Below, piece by piece: positions 1 through 7,914 of a stretch of 17,212 nucleotides of DNA. Numbering within the stretch: position 1 is the stretch's first letter; each line of letters begins with the position of its first letter. The notes beneath the pieces were generated by a model that was not told the origin of the DNA, searched no databases, and saw only the letters and a program-made list of their open reading frames with translations. The DNA comes from Actinomycetes bacterium (GTDB lineage Bacteria; Actinomycetota; Actinomycetes; Mycobacteriales; Mycobacteriaceae), in contig JAHZJY010000203.1 in assembly GCA_022600695.1 (NCBI GenBank), forward strand, positions 1 through 17,212. The letters are read 5' to 3'. Both the position numbers and the translations under genes were made by a program.

Positions 1-863
1 AGGAACGCGGTGAAGTGGACCCTGTCGTCGGCCCAGGCATAGCTGCCGAAGCCGTACCCGGTCAGCCGGTGGGTGAGATCGGCGGCGTTCAGCGACAGCG
101 CGAGCTTGATGCCCTCAGTCTCCGGGGAGGTGTGGGCTGGGAAGCTCTGCAACACCAGCAGGCCGTTGCCGTAGAGGGGGTGCGGCTGGTCTGTGAGCAA
201 CCGGCACTCAGAGGTGCTCTCACCGAACGGGAACTCGACGGTGATTCCGTCCGCCCCGGCGACGACGGGAGAAGGCGACCCGGCAGTGTAATGGTCCGCG
301 ACGGCGCGGACCTCGGCTCCGGTCCATGCGCAGGGCGCCTCGCCGCCGTTGGCAAAAACCTTTGCCGCGAAGGCCATCTGGTCGGGAACCGCCCGTGCGC
401 CGCTCTCCGGGTGCTCGCTGATCGCCGGTAGCGCCGCGGTGGCGCGAGCCAGCACGGGGGCCGTCATCCGTGTCTCGGCGAGTTGGAGCACCGCGGCGGC
501 GCCGAGCAGAAATCGCATCCAGCTGCCGTTGTCCTCAGTGACCCGCGCCAACGACCACAGGTCCAGTCGGCGGGCCTCGGGGTCGTAGACCGGCCCGGCC
601 ATCGAGGCACAGCGCATCGGCAAAGCGTTGATCTCGGCCAGTGCCGCCTCGGTGAGATCCAGCTCGCGGAGCAACTCGGTGCGCACACAGACCAGGTATC
701 CGGTCTCCCCGTTGGGCCCGGTCTCCTCACGGGTGATCTCGACGGTCTGGGCGAACTGGTCGGCCCACCAGGTCAACCCGGTCGGGAGCCGGTAGGACCA
801 CCGCTCGTCGATGCCGAGTTGGACGGTGGCCAGCCAGTCGATGATCTCCTCGGCGATGTTCAC
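1..863 (-). CDS. Conserved-looking protein of unknown function, C-terminus beyond the left edge
   Basis: I translated the minus strand from the GTG at 863 to base 1 and found 287 complete codons with no stop, so the C-terminus lies outside the window. The start is inferred: its GTG overlaps the TGA of the upstream acyl-CoA oxidase gene by 4 nt (GTGA), which suggests translational coupling. The protein begins MNIAEEIIDWLATVQLGIDE and has a WW pair near residues 32-33. I see no signal peptide, membrane segment or catalytic signature, and the composition is that of a soluble cytosolic protein. Third-position GC is high and matches the neighbours. I do not recognise the family. Its place as last visible gene of the dioxygenase/P450/acyl-CoA oxidase operon suggests a role in the same lipid pathway, which is inference only. 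Confidence 0.75.
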   Translation of the reverse strand, partial: MNIAEEIIDWLATVQLGIDERWSYRLPTGLTWWADQFAQTVEITREETGPNGETGYLVCVRTELLRELDLTEAALAEINALPMRCASMAGPVYDPEARRLDLWSLARVTEDNGSWMRFLLGAAAVLQLAETRMTAPVLARATAALPAISEHPESGARAVPDQMAFAAKVFANGGEAPCAWTGAEVRAVADHYTAGSPSPVVAGADGITVEFPFGESTSECRLLTDQPHPLYGNGLLVLQSFPAHTSPETEGIKLALSLNAADLTHRLTGYGFGSYAWADDRVHFTAF

Positions 864-2785
864 GAACCGGCCGCGGGGATGAGTTCGGGGTGCAGCATCT
901 CCGCGTAGCGCAGCTGCTCCGGAATTCCGAAGGCGTCCACCAGCGTCTCGGCGTGCGGGCGCAGGTTGCGGCAGCGTTCGTTGATCCCGTTGTTGACCGC
1001 CCTGGCCCGTTCCGTCGACAGCAGCCGATGCTCCAGGAAGAACGCCTTATCGGCCTCGATGACGCCCAGCGCGTAGAGGTCGCAGACCATGTCGAGGATA
1101 TTCCGGGCTTCTGGATCCTCACAGCCTTCGATACCGGCGATGAACGACTCCAGGACGGTGGTGTCGATATGCGCCCGCGCGAGGTGCATCACGTGGTCCT
1201 GCACCGAATTGAAGGCGTCGAACGCCGACATCGTCTTGGCTCTGCGCTGCAGCCGGCGGGCCAGCGATGACAGCAGGTACTCCTCGCGGTCCTCGAACAT
1301 TTTCGCCTGGGTGCCCCGGTTGAACAGGCTGCCTTCCTCGTCGTTGTCCTGGCGGTTGTCGAGGATGATCTGCATGATCTGCTGGCCGGCGGTCCTTCTG
1401 CGCACCCGCTCTCCGGCGAAATTGGCGGCGAACTTGACCCATTCGACCGGGCTCATGCCCTTGATATCGTCGTTGTAGCCGGTGAGTAGGTGCTTGGCCA
1501 CCAGTTGCAGCAGAACGTGATTGTCGCCCTCGAACGTGGTGAACACGTCGGTGTCGGCGCGCAGCTCGACCAGCCGGTTCTCGGCGAGGTAGCCCGCCCC
1601 GCCGCAGGCCTCCCGGGCCTCCTGGATGGCCGCGCTGGCGTGCCAGGTGCTGACCACCTTCACCCCGGCCGCATGCGCCTCGAGCTCGCGCTGCGCCTCC
1701 ATATCGCGCACTTCGGTGGTCTCCTGATCGTGCAGTGTGGCGACCAACTGGTTCTGGGCGAACTGCAGTGCATAGGACTGCGCGACATAGGGCAGCAGCC
1801 GGCGCTGATGCACCAGGTAGTCCATGATGGGAACTTCGCGGTCCTCGCCGGGAGCGTTGAACTGCCTGCGCTGCAGCGCGTATCGCACCGCGATGTCCAG
1901 TGCCACGCGAGCGGCCTGCGCGGCACTTCCTCCCACGGTGACCCGGCCGCGGACCAGCGTTCCCAGCATGGTGAAGAAGCGCCGGTTCGGGTTCTCGATC
2001 GGTGAGCTGTAGCTGCCGTCCGGTGCGACATCGGCGAACTTGTTCAGCAGGTTCTCCCGAGGCACCCGGACCTGGTCGAACATGATCCGGCCGTTGTCGA
2101 CTCCGGGTAGCCCTCCCTTGTAGTCGCAGTCCGAGGTGGTGACCCCGGCTAGATCGTTGCCCTGCTCGTCCCGGAGCGGGACCATGAAGCAGTGCACGCC
2201 GTGGCACTCGCCGCGGGTGATCAGCTGGGCGAAAACCGCTGCTACCGTGGCGCTCTCGGCGGCACCGCCGAGGTAGTCCTTGCGGGAGGTCGGGGTGGGG
2301 GAGTGGATGACGAACTCTTCGGTTTCCGGGTCATAGGTGGCGGTGGTCTCGAGGTTCTGGACGTCGCTGCCGTGACCGGTCTCGGTCATGGCGAAACACC
2401 CCAGCAGATCCAGGGTGATCAGCGGTCGGACGTAGGTCTCATGGTGCCGCTCGGTGCCTAGGTTCTCCACAGCCCCACCGAACAGCCCCCACAAGACCCC
2501 CGCCTTGACCATGAGCGATAGGTCCGACATCGCCAGCATCTCGATCTTGGTGACCGCGGCCCCGGCATCGCCGGTTCCGCCGTGGTCCTTCCGGAAGGCG
2601 TCCTCGGCGGCCCCGGCGGCCGCGATGATTCGCAGTTGCTCATTGACCCGGGCCCGGGCGACGGACTTGGTCGGGGTGAAGTGCGGGCGGAAGATCTCCA
2701 ACGACAGTTTCTCGCGGATCATGGTCTTGGTGTCGCGCCAGCGGCCGTCGAGTGCCCGCTGCAGGTGCTCGCTCGTGGTGGTCAT
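860..2785 (-). CDS. Acyl-CoA oxidase / acyl-CoA dehydrogenase family flavoprotein
   Basis: Predicted 641-aa FAD enzyme that oxidises an acyl-CoA to the 2-enoyl-CoA. The length fits acyl-CoA oxidases (about 600-700 aa) better than ordinary dehydrogenases (about 380-400). Visible motifs are MTETGHGS (133-140, flavin/substrate signature), ALQRRQF (303-309), CGGAGY (394-399) and TTFEGDN, where E419 is the expected catalytic base. The C-terminal third is helical, as in oxidases. The ATG at 2785 gives a typical N-terminus (MTTTSEHLQRALDGRW), but its purine-rich stretch AAAAGG ends only 1 nt before the ATG. An in-frame TTG at 2833 would add 16 residues without a better ribosome site. It lies 72 nt after the P450 gene, with an inverted repeat in the gap, and overlaps the next gene by 4 nt. 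Whether electrons go to oxygen or to an electron-transfer flavoprotein cannot be read from the sequence. Confidence 0.88.
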   Translation of the reverse strand: MTTTSEHLQRALDGRWRDTKTMIREKLSLEIFRPHFTPTKSVARARVNEQLRIIAAAGAAEDAFRKDHGGTGDAGAAVTKIEMLAMSDLSLMVKAGVLWGLFGGAVENLGTERHHETYVRPLITLDLLGCFAMTETGHGSDVQNLETTATYDPETEEFVIHSPTPTSRKDYLGGAAESATVAAVFAQLITRGECHGVHCFMVPLRDEQGNDLAGVTTSDCDYKGGLPGVDNGRIMFDQVRVPRENLLNKFADVAPDGSYSSPIENPNRRFFTMLGTLVRGRVTVGGSAAQAARVALDIAVRYALQRRQFNAPGEDREVPIMDYLVHQRRLLPYVAQSYALQFAQNQLVATLHDQETTEVRDMEAQRELEAHAAGVKVVSTWHASAAIQEAREACGGAGYLAENRLVELRADTDVFTTFEGDNHVLLQLVAKHLLTGYNDDIKGMSPVEWVKFAANFAGERVRRRTAGQQIMQIILDNRQDNDEEGSLFNRGTQAKMFEDREEYLLSSLARRLQRRAKTMSAFDAFNSVQDHVMHLARAHIDTTVLESFIAGIEGCEDPEARNILDMVCDLYALGVIEADKAFFLEHRLLSTERARAVNNGINERCRNLRPHAETLVDAFGIPEQLRYAEMLHPELIPAAGS

Positions 2786-2834
2786 ACCTTTTGATAGCTC
2801 AACACGCCTCGCGGCACCGGCCTTTCGAACCAAG

Positions 2835-2859
2835 AAGTCACACTCGGCGAGTGTGACTT
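2835..2859. promoter_or_regulatory. Perfect 11-bp inverted repeat, 3-nt centre, between P450 and acyl-CoA oxidase genes
   Basis: AAGTCACACTC (2835-2845), then GGC, then GAGTGTGACTT (2849-2859): all 11 positions pair. It overlaps the TAA stop of the P450 gene (2858-2860) and lies about 50 nt upstream of the acyl-CoA oxidase ATG. Read as minus-strand RNA it is a strong hairpin followed by CUUGGUUCG, only moderately U-rich, so it could be a leaky terminator. Read as DNA, a symmetric site of about 25 bp is also what a TetR-type repressor dimer would bind, giving the flavoenzyme gene its own control. I saw no second copy in the window. Confidence 0.6.
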
Positions 2860-4177
2860 ACGTCGCCGGGGTGACCTCGACTGTGAACCCGAACAGGTCG
2901 AGGCTGTGCGGCAGCGACTTCGCCGGATCGAGCCGCGCTCCGTTCACCGCGAGCGTACCGGCGCTGATCAGGTGAGCCATCACCGCCTGCCCCAGGAACA
3001 CCGACAGGCCGTAGCCGGGGCAGCCTTGCGGCCCGTGGCTCATGAAGTTGTAGGACCAGTCGTCGCCGGCTGTTCCGGTGACCCATTCACCGGGGGAGAA
3101 CCGGTCCGCATACGGGATGCGCGCCCGATTCCGGTGGTTGAACACGTTGTAGATCAACACCTGGTGTCCCTCGGGCAGAACGGCACCGTTGGGGAACTCG
3201 ATGTCGCGGGTTGCAACCCGGGCGAACAGGCCGGTGGTAGGCCACAATCGCATGGCTTCCAGCAGACAGCCGGCCAGGTATTTCAGCGACCCGACACCTT
3301 TGGGTGTGCCGATATCGGCGGCGCCGATCTCGGTGCGGACCTCGGCCTGCTGCTCGGGGTGCGTGGCGAGGGCGGCCAGCGCGCGGAGCGTGTTGGCGGC
3401 CAGCGTGTCTCCCATGGCGAACAACCAGTGGATCACCTGGCCGGCCGCGCCCCCTGGCGGGGCGGGCGTCTTGGCGATCTCCGCGGCCAGGCTGCCGGGC
3501 TCCGCCTTGTCCAGATGGCCCTCGATGATCCCGATCAACTCCGGGTATTGCGGACCGGGCTCGCCGGGCATCTTGTTGCCCTGGGACATCAGTTCACCGA
3601 GGACGTCCATCAATCGGGTGTCATCGGCAGCGTGGTCGCCGAACACGACGCGTCGCGTCATTCGCTGGAACGCTCGGTCGATGGTGTGGTAGTCGACCGC
3701 GACGCCGGTCAATTCCTTGGCGGTGTCGGCAGCGACCTTCACGAACGATTTGGCCATACTGTGTAGCGGTTTGCCGGGCTCGAGGACGGCGTCGGCGAAC
3801 TGCCGGCGCTGCGTCCACAGATCTCCCCGGGAAATGGTCAGGGCGTCGGGCTGAAAGGCCGACATTCCCTTGAGTTTCGGCTCCGGGTCCGAGGCGAACG
3901 GATCCGGGGAGCCGCCGAGAACGAACTTCAGGTCATCGGGGTGATGAACCAGAAGCGCTTCGTCCTTGGCGACACGGACGAAGAACGGTCCGGACCCGTA
4001 GCTTTTCACCATCTCTTCAACCAGCCGGTAACCCAGATGGTCGGTGCCCAGGCGGGATACCACCTTGGTGGGCAGCTCCCGTTTGTTGAACAGACCCTGG
4101 ATCACGTTGGGTAGGCCAACCTCGGCGGTGAACCGGATTCCCTCCAGAACAGAGGCGTGCGGGAAGTCATCGGTCAC
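2858..4177 (-). CDS. Cytochrome P450, partner of the adjacent alpha-dioxygenase
   Basis: A 439-aa soluble P450 without a membrane anchor. Visible landmarks are the C-helix W121xxxR125, the I-helix AMGDT (254-258) with the acid-alcohol pair D257-T258, the ExxR pair E307/R310, an ADRFSPGEW segment (358-366), and the heme loop HGPQGCPG with thiolate C386. Two positions are unusual: the Phe normally 7 residues before the heme Cys is M379 (a Phe sits at 378), and the I-helix Thr/Ser after D-T is L259. The GTG at 4177 lies 6 nt after the dioxygenase stop, and its GGGGG ribosome site is inside the end of that gene, so the two are probably co-translated. No ferredoxin or reductase gene is nearby. It may hydroxylate, isomerise or cleave the dioxygenase product; the reaction is inference. 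The CYP family cannot be assigned by eye. Confidence 0.92.
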   Translation of the reverse strand: MTDDFPHASVLEGIRFTAEVGLPNVIQGLFNKRELPTKVVSRLGTDHLGYRLVEEMVKSYGSGPFFVRVAKDEALLVHHPDDLKFVLGGSPDPFASDPEPKLKGMSAFQPDALTISRGDLWTQRRQFADAVLEPGKPLHSMAKSFVKVAADTAKELTGVAVDYHTIDRAFQRMTRRVVFGDHAADDTRLMDVLGELMSQGNKMPGEPGPQYPELIGIIEGHLDKAEPGSLAAEIAKTPAPPGGAAGQVIHWLFAMGDTLAANTLRALAALATHPEQQAEVRTEIGAADIGTPKGVGSLKYLAGCLLEAMRLWPTTGLFARVATRDIEFPNGAVLPEGHQVLIYNVFNHRNRARIPYADRFSPGEWVTGTAGDDWSYNFMSHGPQGCPGYGLSVFLGQAVMAHLISAGTLAVNGARLDPAKSLPHSLDLFGFTVEVTPAT

Positions 4178-4183
4178 AGCGGA

Positions 4184-5998
4184 TTACCCCCACGGCATGT
4201 AGGCGCGGACCGTATCGGCCAGCTGGACGATACGGTGCGGTTTGCCGGGCACCGGTGCGCCCAACTTGGGCCAGGGTGCGAACATCCGGTCGACACCTTC
4301 GAGCGCCGGCTCCAACTCCGGGTAATGCCGCAGCACGACATCTTTCATGCCGGTGTTGTTCACCCAGTCGAATCCGACCTGGGTGTAGACCTCCGGCCGG
4401 AAGTCGTCGGTGAAGAACCGGTCGGACTTCAGCCGGCGCGAGGCCATCAGGATGAAGACCCGGAAGGCGGTGTCGGAGAAGCCGAATCCCTTCGGTGGTT
4501 GCTCGGCCTGCATACCGATTTGGGTGTCGACCAGATCGACGTCGCCGTTGTAGATCTCGTTGATCTCCTTGGCCCACTGCTTGTTGGGGGTGATCTCGTC
4601 GATGCTCTTGCGGCGGGGCATGTGCATCGCCTCGCGGAAGTCGTTGTACCGCGGGACCCCGCGCTCGCGGTCGCGGACCAGGTCCAGGGTGGCCAGGTCG
4701 GTGAATTGACCGTCGATCCGCTCCAGTTGGCGCAGCGCGTTGGGGTAGTTGTGCAGGCAGATAGCGCCGGCACTGGCCTGACCCATGGAGTACCAGAGGT
4801 CGCCCATCTGCATGCTGTGCATGAAGTCGCGGGTGTACTTGCCCTGGATTTCGGTGAAGGTGGCGTTGCGCAGGTGCTCGCCAGACTCCAACGAGAAGAA
4901 GTTCCAGTCGTCCGGGATCAGCGGATGCAGCCGGTAGACGGTGACGAACTCCTCGGTCAGCGAGAACGGCGCCGCATGGTGTTCGAACGGGGAGCCGACG
5001 ATGCCCGACAGCGCTTCGCTGTCACCGACACGACCGATCTTGTCCTTGAACGTCTCGCCCAGGGCGCCGTACCAGTTGGCGTTCATCCCGATCTGCAGCG
5101 CGGGATGGCGCAGCACACACGTCGTCCACTCGACGGTGTGGATCTTGGCGATCAGCGCCGATACCGTCAGCACTCCGAGTTCGAACAGTCGCTGATCGTC
5201 GAAGCTGGGGTAGGCCTTCTTCAGTGCATCGCACACCGCGTTGTGCTCGCGAGCGAACAGGGTGTGCAGGATGCCCACCCCGCTCCAGTAGTTCTCCTCG
5301 AAGCCGGTCAGGTCGATACCCGCGGTGGCATCGCTCTCCGGTAGCCGGCCGTCGTTCTGGACCTTGATCTTGCCGTCCTTGAACGTGCGGACCCGTGCCT
5401 GTTTCTCATTGCCGCTGCCGTAGACCTGCGAGCCGTCCCACCAGTGTGTCTCGCTGTTGGGGAACACCGGTGCGGGCTTGCCGTCGACGATCTCCTGGCC
5501 GTCGATCGGGATCGTCCGGCGGATTTGCATCGGGTTCTTGGGGAAGTTGTCGCCCTCGCCCAGGGGAATGTCGATGACCTTGTCCGGCTCACCGTTGCCG
5601 TGGAAGAACCAGTTGTGGTTCTCGAACTGAATCCACGCTGCGGCGATCGTGTTGATGATGCCGGCCGGCTTGAACGAGTCGCGGGCCATCAGCTTGCGGC
5701 TGATCAGTCGCGGGTCCGGGTCGAGAAGCTTTTTGGTGTGGGTGATCGTCTTGTCCAGGGGGACGTTGCGACCGAATCCGGTCCCGGCCGCGCCCATCCA
5801 GGGGTCCGACAGATCGTTGAACGTGCCATCCGCGGTCCGACCGCGCTTGGCCTCCTCAGAGGGCTCGCCGAGATCGGTGTCGGGCCGGATGCCCTCGCCC
5901 TCGAAGAGGTTCTCCTCACGCATCGTGTCGCGCAGGCTCGCCAGTGCGTGAACCTGCAGGACCAATGACGGATGTTCGTACCACTGCCTATCGCTCAT
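4184..5998 (-). CDS. Alpha-dioxygenase-like fatty acid dioxygenase (animal heme peroxidase superfamily)
   Basis: A 604-aa heme enzyme resembling plant pathogen-inducible alpha-dioxygenases (about 640 aa), which convert fatty acids to 2-hydroperoxy acids that decay to aldehydes one carbon shorter. AAAWIQFENHNW (119-130) holds Q124 and distal H128 with the Q-x3-H spacing of cyclooxygenases. EEFVTVYRLHPLIPD (349-363) holds the radical Tyr Y355 and proximal heme ligand H358 with the Y-x2-H spacing. HWWDGSQVYGS (185-195), LFAREHNAVCD (247-257), AKIHTVEWT (284-292) and RDRERGVPRYNDFR (442-455) match remembered alpha-DOX blocks. There is no signal peptide or EGF domain, so it should be cytosolic. 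The ATG at 5998 follows an AGGGGAAAAC ribosome site; the gene starts 54 nt after the upstream gene and 6 nt before the P450. Linoleate 8R/10R-dioxygenase activity is the main alternative. Family is firm; position of oxygenation is open. Confidence 0.93.
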   Translation of the reverse strand: MSDRQWYEHPSLVLQVHALASLRDTMREENLFEGEGIRPDTDLGEPSEEAKRGRTADGTFNDLSDPWMGAAGTGFGRNVPLDKTITHTKKLLDPDPRLISRKLMARDSFKPAGIINTIAAAWIQFENHNWFFHGNGEPDKVIDIPLGEGDNFPKNPMQIRRTIPIDGQEIVDGKPAPVFPNSETHWWDGSQVYGSGNEKQARVRTFKDGKIKVQNDGRLPESDATAGIDLTGFEENYWSGVGILHTLFAREHNAVCDALKKAYPSFDDQRLFELGVLTVSALIAKIHTVEWTTCVLRHPALQIGMNANWYGALGETFKDKIGRVGDSEALSGIVGSPFEHHAAPFSLTEEFVTVYRLHPLIPDDWNFFSLESGEHLRNATFTEIQGKYTRDFMHSMQMGDLWYSMGQASAGAICLHNYPNALRQLERIDGQFTDLATLDLVRDRERGVPRYNDFREAMHMPRRKSIDEITPNKQWAKEINEIYNGDVDLVDTQIGMQAEQPPKGFGFSDTAFRVFILMASRRLKSDRFFTDDFRPEVYTQVGFDWVNNTGMKDVVLRHYPELEPALEGVDRMFAPWPKLGAPVPGKPHRIVQLADTVRAYMPWG

Positions 5999-6052
5999 GT
6001 TTTCCCCTGCCCTGTGAAGTGGTGTGATCTGCGGTAGCTGAGACGGATACGT

Positions 6053-6700
6053 TCAGCGCGGGATGCGCAGCGCGAAGTAGCCGATCTTGTTGTAACCCGC
6101 GTCGGTTTTGAACAAGATCTTTCCGAGGTACACGCCGGGCACCAGTTCGACGAGTTCGTCGCGGACGCTGCGGATGATCAGTTTCGGATTCTTCTCGACA
6201 TCGGCGTAGTCGATCACCATGACGTCGACGTCGGGATCTTCCTTGCCGGCCTCGACGTAGGTCTCGAAGTCGAAGGCCAGTTTGCCGTCGACGTGGTCCT
6301 TCATCGAGTACAGCGGCCACAGCAGTTTGCCCACCAGGCCGGTGCTCTTGGTCAGCCGATTGTCGCCAGTGGCGGCCTCGGAGTCGAAGCGCTTGCCCTG
6401 CCAGGGCATCCACAGTGCGGTGATGGCGCGCACCACAGCATCGAATCTGGGGTTGGTGGTGGTCATGACGAGCATGCCCTCGGTGGGTCCGTGCAGGTCG
6501 GTCGGCGCGGTGCCCAGCCTGAACAGCTCGTTGAGATCCGCGTCGGCACCGGTGGCGTCACTCTTCGCACGCTCGGCCAGATCGTCGATCCACGCCCAGG
6601 TCGAGTCAGCGGCCCCCTCAGGCTGGGCCTTGACCGAATCGCGCAACCATTCCAGCTTGCCCGCCACACCGGGAACCACGGTTTCGCGTTCCTTGGCCAT
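6053..6700 (-). CDS. 215-aa protein of unknown function, first gene of the dioxygenase/P450 operon
   Basis: I do not recognise this protein. The ATG at 6700 is chosen because AGGAGG sits 6 nt upstream; longer frames starting at 6715 or 6730 would read through that site. The N-terminal 60 residues are charged and helical (MAKERETVVPGVAGKLEWLR at the start). The C-terminal half alternates hydrophobic and polar residues, as in a beta-rich fold, with LVPGVYLGKILFK (186-198) and KIGYFALRIPR at the very end. There is no signal peptide, transmembrane helix or cysteine. A small lipid-binding or barrel-like accessory protein is conceivable but not shown. It stands 54 nt ahead of the dioxygenase gene on the same strand, so a role in handling the same fatty-acid substrate or product is a reasonable inference. 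Confidence 0.85.
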   Translation of the reverse strand: MAKERETVVPGVAGKLEWLRDSVKAQPEGAADSTWAWIDDLAERAKSDATGADADLNELFRLGTAPTDLHGPTEGMLVMTTTNPRFDAVVRAITALWMPWQGKRFDSEAATGDNRLTKSTGLVGKLLWPLYSMKDHVDGKLAFDFETYVEAGKEDPDVDVMVIDYADVEKNPKLIIRSVRDELVELVPGVYLGKILFKTDAGYNKIGYFALRIPR

Positions 6701-6704
6701 CAAC

Positions 6705-6761
6705 GTCCTCCTCATAACTGTCGCGTGCATACGTGATCGGGAACGATCCTATGAGGAAGAC
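6705..6761 (-). promoter_or_regulatory. Possible RNA hairpin sequestering the Shine-Dalgarno of the first operon gene
   Basis: On the minus strand GTCTTCCTCATA (6761-6750) can pair with TATGAGGAGGAC (6716-6705). As RNA all 12 positions pair, one of them a G-U wobble, around a 33-nt loop. The downstream arm contains the whole AGGAGG site of the ATG at 6700, so the folded leader would hide it. This holds only if transcription starts upstream of 6761. A long-spaced protein-binding DNA repeat is the alternative. Confidence 0.45.
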
Positions 6762-7051: not shown

Positions 7052-7441
7052 GTGGACCGAGCAGGCTCCGTGGCCCCCGATGCCGATACCGCGGGTGTCG
7101 CCGGTTGTGCGATCAGTGAGCAGTGGACGGATCGACTCGCGGTGATCTCGGTATCCGGGGTGCTCGACATGCTTACTGCGCCCCGGCTTTCGGCGGCGAT
7201 CACGGCATCATTGTCCGGGAACCCTTCGGCGATCATCGTCGATCTGTCCGACACCGACTTTCTGGCCTCAGCGGGAATGAGCGCACTGGTCGCCGGCCGT
7301 GAAGAGGCCGGTGCCGCCGTGGAGTTCCGGGTGGTCGCCGACGGGCCGGCCACGAGTCGCCCGCTCAAGATGGTGGGTCTGGCTGACCTGATCGGTCTCC
7401 ATCCGACCCGCGATGCGGTGCGCGCAACCCTGAGCGCGTAA
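7052..7441 (+). CDS. STAS-domain anti-sigma-factor antagonist (anti-anti-sigma factor)
   Basis: A 129-aa single-domain STAS protein. The family binds and releases anti-sigma (serine kinase) factors, freeing an alternative sigma factor such as SigF in mycobacteria. The GTG at 7052 follows GGGAGGT with 7-nt spacing. The fold is visible as LAVISVSGVLDMLTAPRL (29-46), IIVDLSDTDFLASAGMSALV (61-80) and the C-terminal helix DAVRATL. Against SpoIIAA (FxDSSGLG) the phosphorylated Ser column appears to be A74, with S73 next to it, so phospho-control may use S73 or be altered. No anti-sigma or sigma gene lies in the window, so the partner is unknown. It stands alone between divergent neighbours and 47 nt ahead of the PGPGW membrane gene. 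Confidence 0.88.
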   Translation: MDRAGSVAPDADTAGVAGCAISEQWTDRLAVISVSGVLDMLTAPRLSAAITASLSGNPSAIIVDLSDTDFLASAGMSALVAGREEAGAAVEFRVVADGPATSRPLKMVGLADLIGLHPTRDAVRATLSA

Positions 7442-7488: not shown

Positions 7489-7914
7489 ATGTCTGCACTC
7501 GTGACCGGTATCAGACGCCGAATCGCCGGCAGCCGAGATCGGATCCGCAACCGCCCGATGGTCGATCTCGCTTACCGGGTGGCGGTCGGCGTCGTCGGTT
7601 TCGTGGTGTTGGCGGTCGGAATCGCCGCCATTCCGTATCCCGGACCGGGCTGGGCCATCGTGTTCGTCGGGCTGGCGATCCTGGCCTCCGAGTTCTACTG
7701 GGCGCACCGCACCCTGATGTACACCCGACGACGGTATGACAGCGCCATGATCTGGTTGCGTCGGCAGAGCTGGTGGGTGCAGGCACTCGGGGTGGTGTTC
7801 ACCGCGGCGGTCGTGGTGGTGACGCTCTGGCTGCTGGGTGCGCTGGCGTGGTCGGCCCGGCTCGTCGGACTGCACCACCCCGCCCTGGACAGTCCCATCG
7901 GCCTGGGAGCCTGA
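7489..7914 (+). CDS. PGPGW-family small membrane protein (TIGR02611-like)
   Basis: A 141-aa integral membrane protein named after the motif it carries, PGPGW (51-55). Predicted membrane segments are about 30-49, 55-70 (after the motif) and 96-119. A basic N-terminus ([15 protein letters not shown]) suggests a cytoplasmic N-terminus. The function of the family is not known to me. The start is uncertain: the ATG at 7489 has no good ribosome site, and a GTG at 7501 would remove four residues. It lies 80 nt upstream of thrS on the same strand and may or may not be co-transcribed with it. Confidence 0.85.

What the first reader, a model, noticed from the sequence alone, without database searches (positions are those of the whole stretch)
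860..6700. Candidate bacterial oxylipin/alpha-oxidation operon: unknown protein, alpha-dioxygenase, P450, acyl-CoA oxidase, unknown protein
Five minus-strand genes are packed together: gaps of 54, 6 and 72 nt, then a 4-nt overlap. The dioxygenase keeps every catalytic landmark (Q124, H128, Y355, H358), so a fatty-acid hydroperoxide or its aldehyde is the expected product. An adjacent P450 and an acyl-CoA-oxidising flavoenzyme suggest a stepwise pathway, either controlled chain shortening or a hydroxylated lipid signal. I know of no such pathway in the M. tuberculosis block conserved next door, so this is probably an accessory system.
Basis: partly seen in the sequence, partly recalled or inferred. 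Interest (0 to 1): 0.82.

Follow-up and report, generated by a model that had tools for sequence, protein, structure and literature searches.

The report
Two-heme fatty-acid alpha-oxidation operon
A mycobacterial gene cluster pairs an enzyme that adds oxygen next to the acid group of fatty acids with its own unusual cytochrome P450; the pair is kept together in many actinobacteria and looks like a bacterial version of the two-enzyme oxylipin pathways of fungi and animals.

Summary
Confirmed: five minus-strand genes, gaps 54, 6, 72 and -4 nt, with all named alpha-dioxygenase (aDOX) residues. The genes are not scattered: in 61 named related loci a P450 lies within 400 nt on the same strand in 51, nearby in 5, absent or off-contig in 5. 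The 'unknown' first gene (215 aa, predicted barrel) has a homolog near the aDOX in 39. Gene order varies, so the core is aDOX + P450, usually with the first gene. The acyl-CoA oxidase is general (34 of 35 same-genus genomes); the fifth gene is lineage-restricted and unexplained.

The P450 is odd: Gln replaces Arg/His two before the heme Cys; in four close relatives Ala-Asn replaces the O2-activating Asp-Thr; no ferredoxin gene adjoins. Other aDOX branches are fused or adjacent to a catalase-like domain. I propose that aDOX makes a 2-hydroperoxy fatty acid and the P450 consumes it without redox partners, a split, alpha-position counterpart of fungal DOX-P450 fusions. The module is near certain; the P450 chemistry is inferred (about 0.5). 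The window's own P450 keeps Asp-Thr, so a normal monooxygenase remains possible.

The parts
6053..6700 (-). 215-aa protein, first gene of the operon; predicted N-terminal helices plus a lipocalin-like beta-barrel; candidate fatty-acid/hydroperoxide carrier
6707..6712 (-). Shine-Dalgarno-like AGGAGG of the first gene
   Evidence: Read in sequence, 6 nt before the ATG at 6698-6700.
4184..5998 (-). Fatty-acid alpha-dioxygenase, 604 aa (P0001)
   Evidence: PF03098 E 3.5e-95; 4hhr E 3.1e-115, 4kvj 3.3e-113; catalytic residues.
5615..5629 (-). Distal heme residues Q124 and H128 of aDOX
   Evidence: Q 82/82, H 73/82.
4925..4936 (-). Catalytic Tyr355 and proximal His358 of aDOX
   Evidence: 82/82.
2858..4177 (-). 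Cytochrome P450, 439 aa (P0002), 6 nt after aDOX
   Evidence: PF00067 E 1.6e-22; Cys386 in 55 of 55 family members.
3404..3409 (-). I-helix Asp257-Thr258 of the P450, replaced by Ala-Asn in four close relatives
   Evidence: KAN in 4 of 55 and 34 of 120 homologs.
3014..3040 (-). Heme loop SHGPQGCPG (residues 380-388) with Gln384 two before Cys386
   Evidence: Q384 54/55, C386 55/55; Gln in 118 of 118 readable of 120 homologs.
860..2785 (-). Acyl-CoA oxidase (P0003), general mycobacterial type
   Evidence: PF22924, PF01756, PF02770; rat ACOX 1is2 E 2.1e-77; position of rat Glu421 is Glu in 18/18 rows; 73-78% homologs in 33 other same-genus genomes.
3..863 (-). Last gene, cut by the contig end; full-length homologs about 364-374 aa in alignment A2; function unknown
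   Evidence: No family above threshold; homolog in 8 of 61 loci; among 298 order genomes only the own one; model pLDDT 48.8, unusable.

Best explanation
A two-heme alpha-oxidation module. aDOX abstracts a C2 hydrogen from a free fatty acid and adds O2, giving a 2-hydroperoxy acid (supported only by homology to assayed enzymes). The P450 made from the next gene takes that hydroperoxide as its oxygen and electron source and isomerises or cleaves it without ferredoxin, giving a 2-hydroxy/dihydroxy or 2-oxo acid instead of the spontaneous Cn-1 aldehyde (inferred). The lipocalin-like protein carries the acyl substrate or hydroperoxide between them (inferred from fold). The general acyl-CoA oxidase was added in some lineages and links the product to beta-oxidation (inferred).
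For: aDOX identity and residues. Pairing: 51 of 61 loci within 400 nt on the same strand, 5 more within 2.2 kb and/or on the opposite strand; several gene arrangements; paired in records labelled Mycobacterium, Mycolicibacterium, Nocardioides, Williamsia, Smaragdicoccus, Gordonia, Aeromicrobium, Antrihabitans, Skermania, Amycolatopsis and Thermoleophilaceae. In 298 order genomes a P450 of 60% identity or more was found in 4, all with this aDOX (at most 5 candidates per genome were scored). P450 oddities: Gln at Cys-2 in 54/55; L037, L039 and L060, with the same five genes in the same order, and L040, without the ACOX, have KAN for GDT; Asp lost in 6/55 in all; ExxR is DxxR in 9 of 67 readable locus ORFs, duplicates included. 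No ferredoxin-like gene next to it (motif scan judged by eye). Precedent: fungal LDS/EAS P450s that isomerise DOX hydroperoxides carry Asn at this site and need no redox partner (PMC13049297, passages). Other aDOX branches are fused or adjacent to a catalase-like domain, the other heme fold known to act on fatty-acid hydroperoxides (PMC10813956, passages).
Against: The window's own P450 has Asp257-Thr258, as do 86 of 120 homologs (Asp-Thr/Ser). Asn at the Thr site also occurs in a true monooxygenase (P450cin, recalled); in the fungal enzymes that Asn was dispensable. Fungal partners keep His at Cys-2; this family has Gln. Profile neighbours in the PDB include many monooxygenases (CYP3A4, BM3, carotene epsilon-monooxygenase). 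P450 homologs of 44-46% occur in genomes without an aDOX hit (G187, G242). One aDOX of the clade (L061) has no P450 within 8 kb. The first gene is missing next to the aDOX in 22 of 61 loci and lies far from it in G207 and G281. Of 24 more distant aDOX rows 10 have neither partner adjacent. The catalase-like domains have Phe-His or Ala-His at the presumed distal site, not the Thr-His reported (title only) as the hallmark of hydroperoxide action. Redox partners may be encoded elsewhere. No activity was measured.
Confidence: 0.5

Rival explanations
1. The P450 is a conventional O2/ferredoxin-dependent monooxygenase that hydroxylates the fatty acid, the 2-hydroxy acid or the aldehyde made after aDOX; redox partners are encoded elsewhere.
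For: Acid-alcohol pair Asp257-Thr258 in the window and in 86 of 120 homologs; nearest solved P450s by profile include many monooxygenases; mycobacterial P450s commonly use unlinked ferredoxins (recalled).
Against: 34 of 120 homologs lose both acid and alcohol; no ferredoxin-like gene next to it in the scanned loci (the one Fer2 match is at the far edge of L050, about 8 kb away); Gln at Cys-2.
Confidence: 0.27
2. Catabolic chain shortening: aDOX gives 2-hydroperoxide, then Cn-1 aldehyde or acid, which enters beta-oxidation through the acyl-CoA oxidase; the P450 only reduces excess hydroperoxide or handles branched substrates.
For: ACOX in 18 of 61 loci, placed differently in two Nocardioides; enoyl-CoA hydratase upstream in L037, its cluster also in L076; other aDOX neighbourhoods with FAD-linked oxidase, TPP enzyme, patatin or hydrolase.
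Against: ACOX is general to the genus and was not found in 43 of 61 loci (some cut by contig ends); among the five genes none is an aldehyde dehydrogenase or acyl-CoA ligase by Pfam.
Confidence: 0.17
3. The genes are neighbours by descent or chance with no joint function.
For: aDOX and P450 distances correlate (r 0.86, 51 loci), as vertical descent alone would also give.
Against: Pairing survives changes of gene order and insertion of ACOX between them, while other neighbours change.
Confidence: 0.02

Closest known systems
Plant and cyanobacterial fatty-acid alpha-dioxygenases (Arabidopsis 4hhr, rice 4kvj, CalDOX/LepDOX)
   Same: Domain, catalytic Tyr, heme ligands and substrate-carboxylate residues; 50% identity to a Calothrix PCC 6303 protein.
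   Different: Those are known as stand-alone enzymes giving aldehydes; here one is paired with a P450 and usually a lipocalin-like protein. The CalDOX paper noted actinobacterial aDOXs; its main text holds no 'P450' or 'operon'.
Fungal DOX-P450 fusions (linoleate diol, epoxy-alcohol and allene-oxide synthases)
   Same: Heme dioxygenase of the same superfamily plus a P450; Asn at the distal I-helix site in four close-relative P450s.
   Different: Separate genes, aDOX-type dioxygenase (C2), Gln not His at Cys-2, Asp-Thr in the window's own P450.
Catalase-heme dioxygenase and catalase-lipoxygenase fusions (cyanobacterial 10-DOX type, coral AOS-LOX)
   Same: Hydroperoxide maker joined to a second heme protein; catalase-like partner in other aDOX branches (PMC11719350 passage).
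   Different: The window uses a P450; dioxygenase acts at C2 by homology; distal Thr-His not seen.
Cyclooxygenase with prostacyclin or thromboxane synthase
   Same: An_peroxidase-fold dioxygenase feeding a self-sufficient P450, encoded separately (PMC13049297 passages).
   Different: Different substrate, different P450 families; analogy only.

Membership tests
Fatty-acid alpha-dioxygenase | An_peroxidase domain with closest solved relatives being alpha-DOX | tested here: met
   389 bits to 4hhr against 62 to lactoperoxidase and 60 to COX-2.
Fatty-acid alpha-dioxygenase | Catalytic Tyr, proximal His, distal His and Gln | tested here: met
   Y355, H358, H128, Q124 aligned to the Arabidopsis chain.
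Fatty-acid alpha-dioxygenase | Carboxylate-binding His, Thr, Arg (roles recalled from the plant structures) | tested here: met
   H287, T292, R522 (and R521) in 82/82.
Fatty-acid alpha-dioxygenase | C2 oxygenation of fatty acids | not testable with these tools
   Needs assay.
Fungal DOX-P450 (linoleate diol synthase type) | DOX and P450 in one polypeptide | tested here: not met
   Separate genes 6 nt apart.
Fungal DOX-P450 (linoleate diol synthase type) | Asn followed by Gln in SRS4 (NQxQ) | tested here: not met
   Window has DTLAAN; Asn is present in 4 of 55; in 34 of 120 homologs, followed by Q, E, L or H.
Fungal DOX-P450 (linoleate diol synthase type) | HxC in the heme loop | tested here: not met
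   QxC in 54/55; HxC only in L074.
CYP74 clan | Extra nine-residue motif in the heme domain | tested here: not met
   Loop read by eye as NFMSHGPQGCPG without an insertion; criterion from PMC10813956 passage.
Conventional P450 monooxygenase | Acid-alcohol pair in the I helix | tested here: met
   Window D257-T258, but lost in 34 of 120 homologs.
Conventional P450 monooxygenase | Arg or His two before the Cys | tested here: not met
   Gln384; criterion from PMC13049297 passage.
Conventional P450 monooxygenase | Dedicated redox partner | tested here: inconclusive
   No adjacent ferredoxin-like gene by motif; partners elsewhere in the genome not searched.
CYP152 peroxygenase | I-helix Arg-Pro and CYP152 homology (recalled) | not tested
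   No direct comparison run; the window P450's three NCBIfam rows at E 0.001 are not CYP152.
Acyl-CoA oxidase | ACOX domains and catalytic Glu (role recalled) | tested here: met
Lipocalin/calycin superfamily (first gene) | Up-down beta-barrel fold | tested here: inconclusive

The most novel reading that the evidence does not exclude
A P450 family dedicated to 2-hydroperoxy fatty acids: a bacterial two-heme oxylipin cascade at the alpha-carbon, fed through a lipocalin-like carrier. Bacteria solved the same hydroperoxide-handling problem twice, with a P450 in one aDOX branch and a catalase-like protein in others.
Probability: 0.42. Interest if true: 0.78.

Novelty: new variant of a known kind. 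Interest (0 to 1): 0.6.

Why it matters
Alpha-dioxygenases are studied mainly as stand-alone aldehyde makers, and their role in bacteria is open. A conserved P450 partner suggests that the 2-hydroperoxide is a pathway intermediate with an enzymatic fate, and gives a cheap in vitro test. It would extend the DOX-to-P450 logic of fungi and mammals to bacteria and provide natural variants (Asp-Thr versus Ala-Asn) of one P450 family for separating O2 activation from hydroperoxide use.

Tried and rejected
ACOX as an operon-specific enzyme: rejected. Close match to the fungal NQxQ motif: weakened, because in the KAN branch the residue after Asn is Q, E, L or H and the window has Asp-Thr. Mirror-tree correlation: not independent evidence, since species descent alone gives it. 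Structure of the last gene: model too poor; not searched. PDB profile search and Pfam with the first gene's alignment: nothing convincing. Solved-structure search with the separate catalase-like gene of L106: none, and Pfam none for L106 and L107. Only fused forms reach Pfam Catalase: of 9 fused proteins scanned, 6 pass the 25-bit cut-off, 2 match below it and 1 (L013) has no match. One of them was compared with the PDB and matched 3e4w; that entry's identity as a Mycobacterium avium catalase-related protein is recalled. Other long N-terminal ORF extensions of aDOX (L006/L061, L016, L024) showed no catalase-like match and were not counted as fusions. Promoters: none; terminators: one, below the shuffled mean; Rfam: none. 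Literature on a bacterial aDOX-P450 pair: none recognised in the listings of searches (open-licence papers only). Rows dropped: aDOX pieces spanning under 520 or 540 query residues and P450s under 400, and identical sequences, were left out of alignments.
Full report
What is there. The window is contig C247 of a 2.82-Mb, 401-contig assembly, 85.8% complete; its closest named relatives are Mycobacterium, Mycolicibacterium or unnamed actinobacterial MAGs. On the plus strand lies the threonyl-tRNA synthetase, Ap4A phosphorylase, PIP synthase, PIM acyltransferase, glycosyltransferase, NUDIX, SOR/SNZ, thioesterase, SNO and YebC block. Divergent from it are the five minus-strand genes reported. The first gene starts at 6700 behind AGGAGG; most of its listed homologs are 214-216 aa long.

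aDOX. The best solved relatives are plant alpha-dioxygenases (4hhr 389 bits, 4kvj 382, against 62 for lactoperoxidase). In 82 aligned sequences (81 bacterial plus the Arabidopsis chain) Gln124, His287, Thr292, Tyr355, His358, Arg521 and Arg522 never vary; His128 is Arg in 9 distant members. Kim et al. (PMC8720084, passages) likewise report a partly conserved distal His; they found aDOXs in Actinobacteria and assayed a Calothrix parietina enzyme. A Calothrix PCC 6303 plasmid protein is 49.8% identical to the window's; that this is CalDOX is my inference.

Neighbourhood. One scan for the aDOX gave 61 named loci. It used exact peptides of the query, so close relatives are favoured, and it is not free of near-duplicates. 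Same-strand P450 within 400 nt: 51 of 61; P450 further off (up to 2.2 kb) or on the opposite strand: 5 (L063, L068, L086, L087, L092); none: 5, of which three contigs end inside or just after the aDOX (L076, L085, L091), one has under 2 kb of flank on each side (L081) and one truly lacks it within 8 kb (L061). A homolog of the first gene near the aDOX: 39 of 61. Acyl-CoA oxidase: 18 of 61. Last gene: 8 of 61. Orders differ: first gene-aDOX-P450 in many mycobacteria (the M. gordonae-like loci L044-L048, L088, L090 lack the first gene there), first gene-P450-aDOX in Smaragdicoccus and Gordonia, ACOX inserted between aDOX and P450 in Nocardioides phosphati and jejuensis, aDOX-P450-first gene in Antrihabitans stalactiti, aDOX-first gene in the Jatrophihabitans MAG. 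Apart from aDOX, P450, first gene and ACOX no neighbour cluster exceeds 9 of 61 loci; the 9 is a PucR-type regulator (one member scanned) divergent from the first gene. P450s of 37-39% identity follow the aDOX even in Thermoleophilaceae-labelled contigs (L079, L082, L083), and one of 43% follows it in a same-phylum, more distant genome (L124).

Co-occurrence. In 298 order genomes, aDOX of any type (E 1e-30) is in 26, P450 at E 1e-40 in 52 (at most 5 candidates scored per genome), the first gene at E 1e-10 in 13, ACOX at E 1e-60 in 209, the last gene at E 1e-8 in 1. aDOX of 60% identity or more: 6 genomes (G000, G165, G199, G207, G271, G281). P450 of 60% or more: 4 (G000, G199, G207, G281), all among these six; G271 has a 40% P450 next to the aDOX; G165 (76% complete) has none. 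Against exclusivity: P450s of 44-46% occur in G187 and G242 without an aDOX hit; the first gene has homologs without aDOX (G052, 63%), and in G207 and G281 its 65-66% homolog lies megabases from the aDOX. ACOX is in 34 of 35 same-genus genomes, so it is not specific; in the own genome only the operon copy was found, with 4 of 21 first-look candidates scored.

The P450. In 55 distinct full-length sequences Cys386 is invariant, Gln384 is in 54, Thr258 is replaced in 4 and Asp257 in 6. Oliw (PMC13049297, abstract and passages) gives FGxGxRxCxG or FGxGxHxCxG as the usual loop, with Arg/His binding heme, and HxC retained in the fungal LDS; this family has QxC. In L037, L039, L040 and L060 the I-helix reads K-A-N instead of G-D-T; three of these four have the full five-gene operon. 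Among 120 listed database homologs (of 1464 matches) 34 have KAN and 86 GD(T/S); Gln is at Cys-2 in all 118 readable. The ExxR Glu is Asp in 9 of 67 readable locus ORFs (duplicates included) and in 2 of 119 readable database homologs. A motif scan, judged by eye, found no convincing ferredoxin-like gene next to the operon; one real Fer2 fragment lies at the far edge of L050, about 8 kb away. A P450 that tolerates loss of the O2-activating pair inside an unchanged operon, beside a hydroperoxide-making enzyme, is what a hydroperoxide-using enzyme would look like. In the fungal diol and epoxy-alcohol synthases Asn sits at this site, and in one of them the following Gln could be replaced without effect. 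But Asn was dispensable there, the window's P450 keeps Asp-Thr, and its profile neighbours in the PDB include many monooxygenases. So this is an inference, not a demonstration.

Other aDOX branches. Of the 24 aDOX rows below 60% identity, 7 carry catalase-like extensions (C-terminal in L008, L009, L013; N-terminal in L019, L022, L025, L026), 3 have an adjacent separate gene of 366-375 aa with 65-70% identity to the C-terminal extension (L106-L108 = rows L028-L030), 2 have a divergently oriented neighbouring P450 (L109, L112; L109 also has a 30% catalase-like gene about 2.8 kb away), 10 show neither next to the aDOX (L117, one of these, has a 34% catalase-like gene 2.6 kb away), and 2 fragments (L027, L031) were not examined. 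Pfam Catalase matches in 6 of these 7 fusions, 4 above its cut-off, and above it in Rhizobium phaseoli and Phyllobacterium plasmid fusions. The L022 extension matches 3e4w over 295 residues, E 1.5e-8. Two same-class loci (L133, L140) have catalase-like sequence directly before the aDOX as well. Catalase-heme dioxygenase fusions acting on linoleate are known (PMC11719350 passage). Thus several aDOX branches pair with one or other of two heme-protein folds known for fatty-acid hydroperoxides, which supports the idea that the 2-hydroperoxide is handed on. The expected distal Thr-His is not seen (Phe-His or Ala-His at the position I take for the distal His).

Verdict. The module is real, conserved and accessory. 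The dioxygenase assignment is strong (about 0.9). The P450 as a redox-partner-free 2-hydroperoxide enzyme is the best single reading (about 0.5), a conventional monooxygenase the main rival (about 0.27). No paper describing the pair was recognised in nine library searches, which cover open-licence papers only.

Noticed in passing
L008, L009, L013 (C-terminal); L019, L022, L025, L026, L142, L144 (N-terminal): Alpha-dioxygenases fused to a catalase-like domain in same-genus genomes, other actinobacteria and rhizobia; a similar protein is a separate adjacent gene in L106-L108.
   Followed up: partly
L010, L011, L012, L014, L016, L017, L021, L023, L024: Distal heme His of the alpha-dioxygenase replaced by Arg; three of these genomes (G088, G222, G262) also hold a His-bearing paralog elsewhere.
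   Followed up: partly
L052, L053, L054, L056, L062, L069, L070, L084, L088: The nearly universal ExxR Glu of P450 (recalled) is Asp in these aDOX-linked P450s.
   Followed up: partly
L143 (Streptomyces sp. NBC_00069 plasmid): Gene row of benzoylformate decarboxylase-like, FAD-linked oxidase, P450, hydrolase and alpha-dioxygenase, resembling an alpha-oxidation pathway.
   Followed up: partly
L035, L036, L038, L041 upstream of the operon: AurF-type N-oxygenase gene on the same strand (one member scanned; cluster).
   Followed up: no
window 7052-7441 and 7489-7914, + strand: STAS-domain anti-sigma antagonist and a PGPGW membrane protein between the operon and thrS; a related gene also lies before the operon in L032.
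   Followed up: no
G000:C247:860-2785: The operon copy is the only acyl-CoA oxidase of this type found in the own (incomplete) genome (4 of 21 candidates scored), while relatives keep it elsewhere; possible relocation.
   Followed up: no
L061 / G165: Window-type aDOX followed by the first-gene homolog but without any P450 nearby; its ORF has a 424-residue N-terminal extension with no Pfam match besides An_peroxidase.
   Followed up: no
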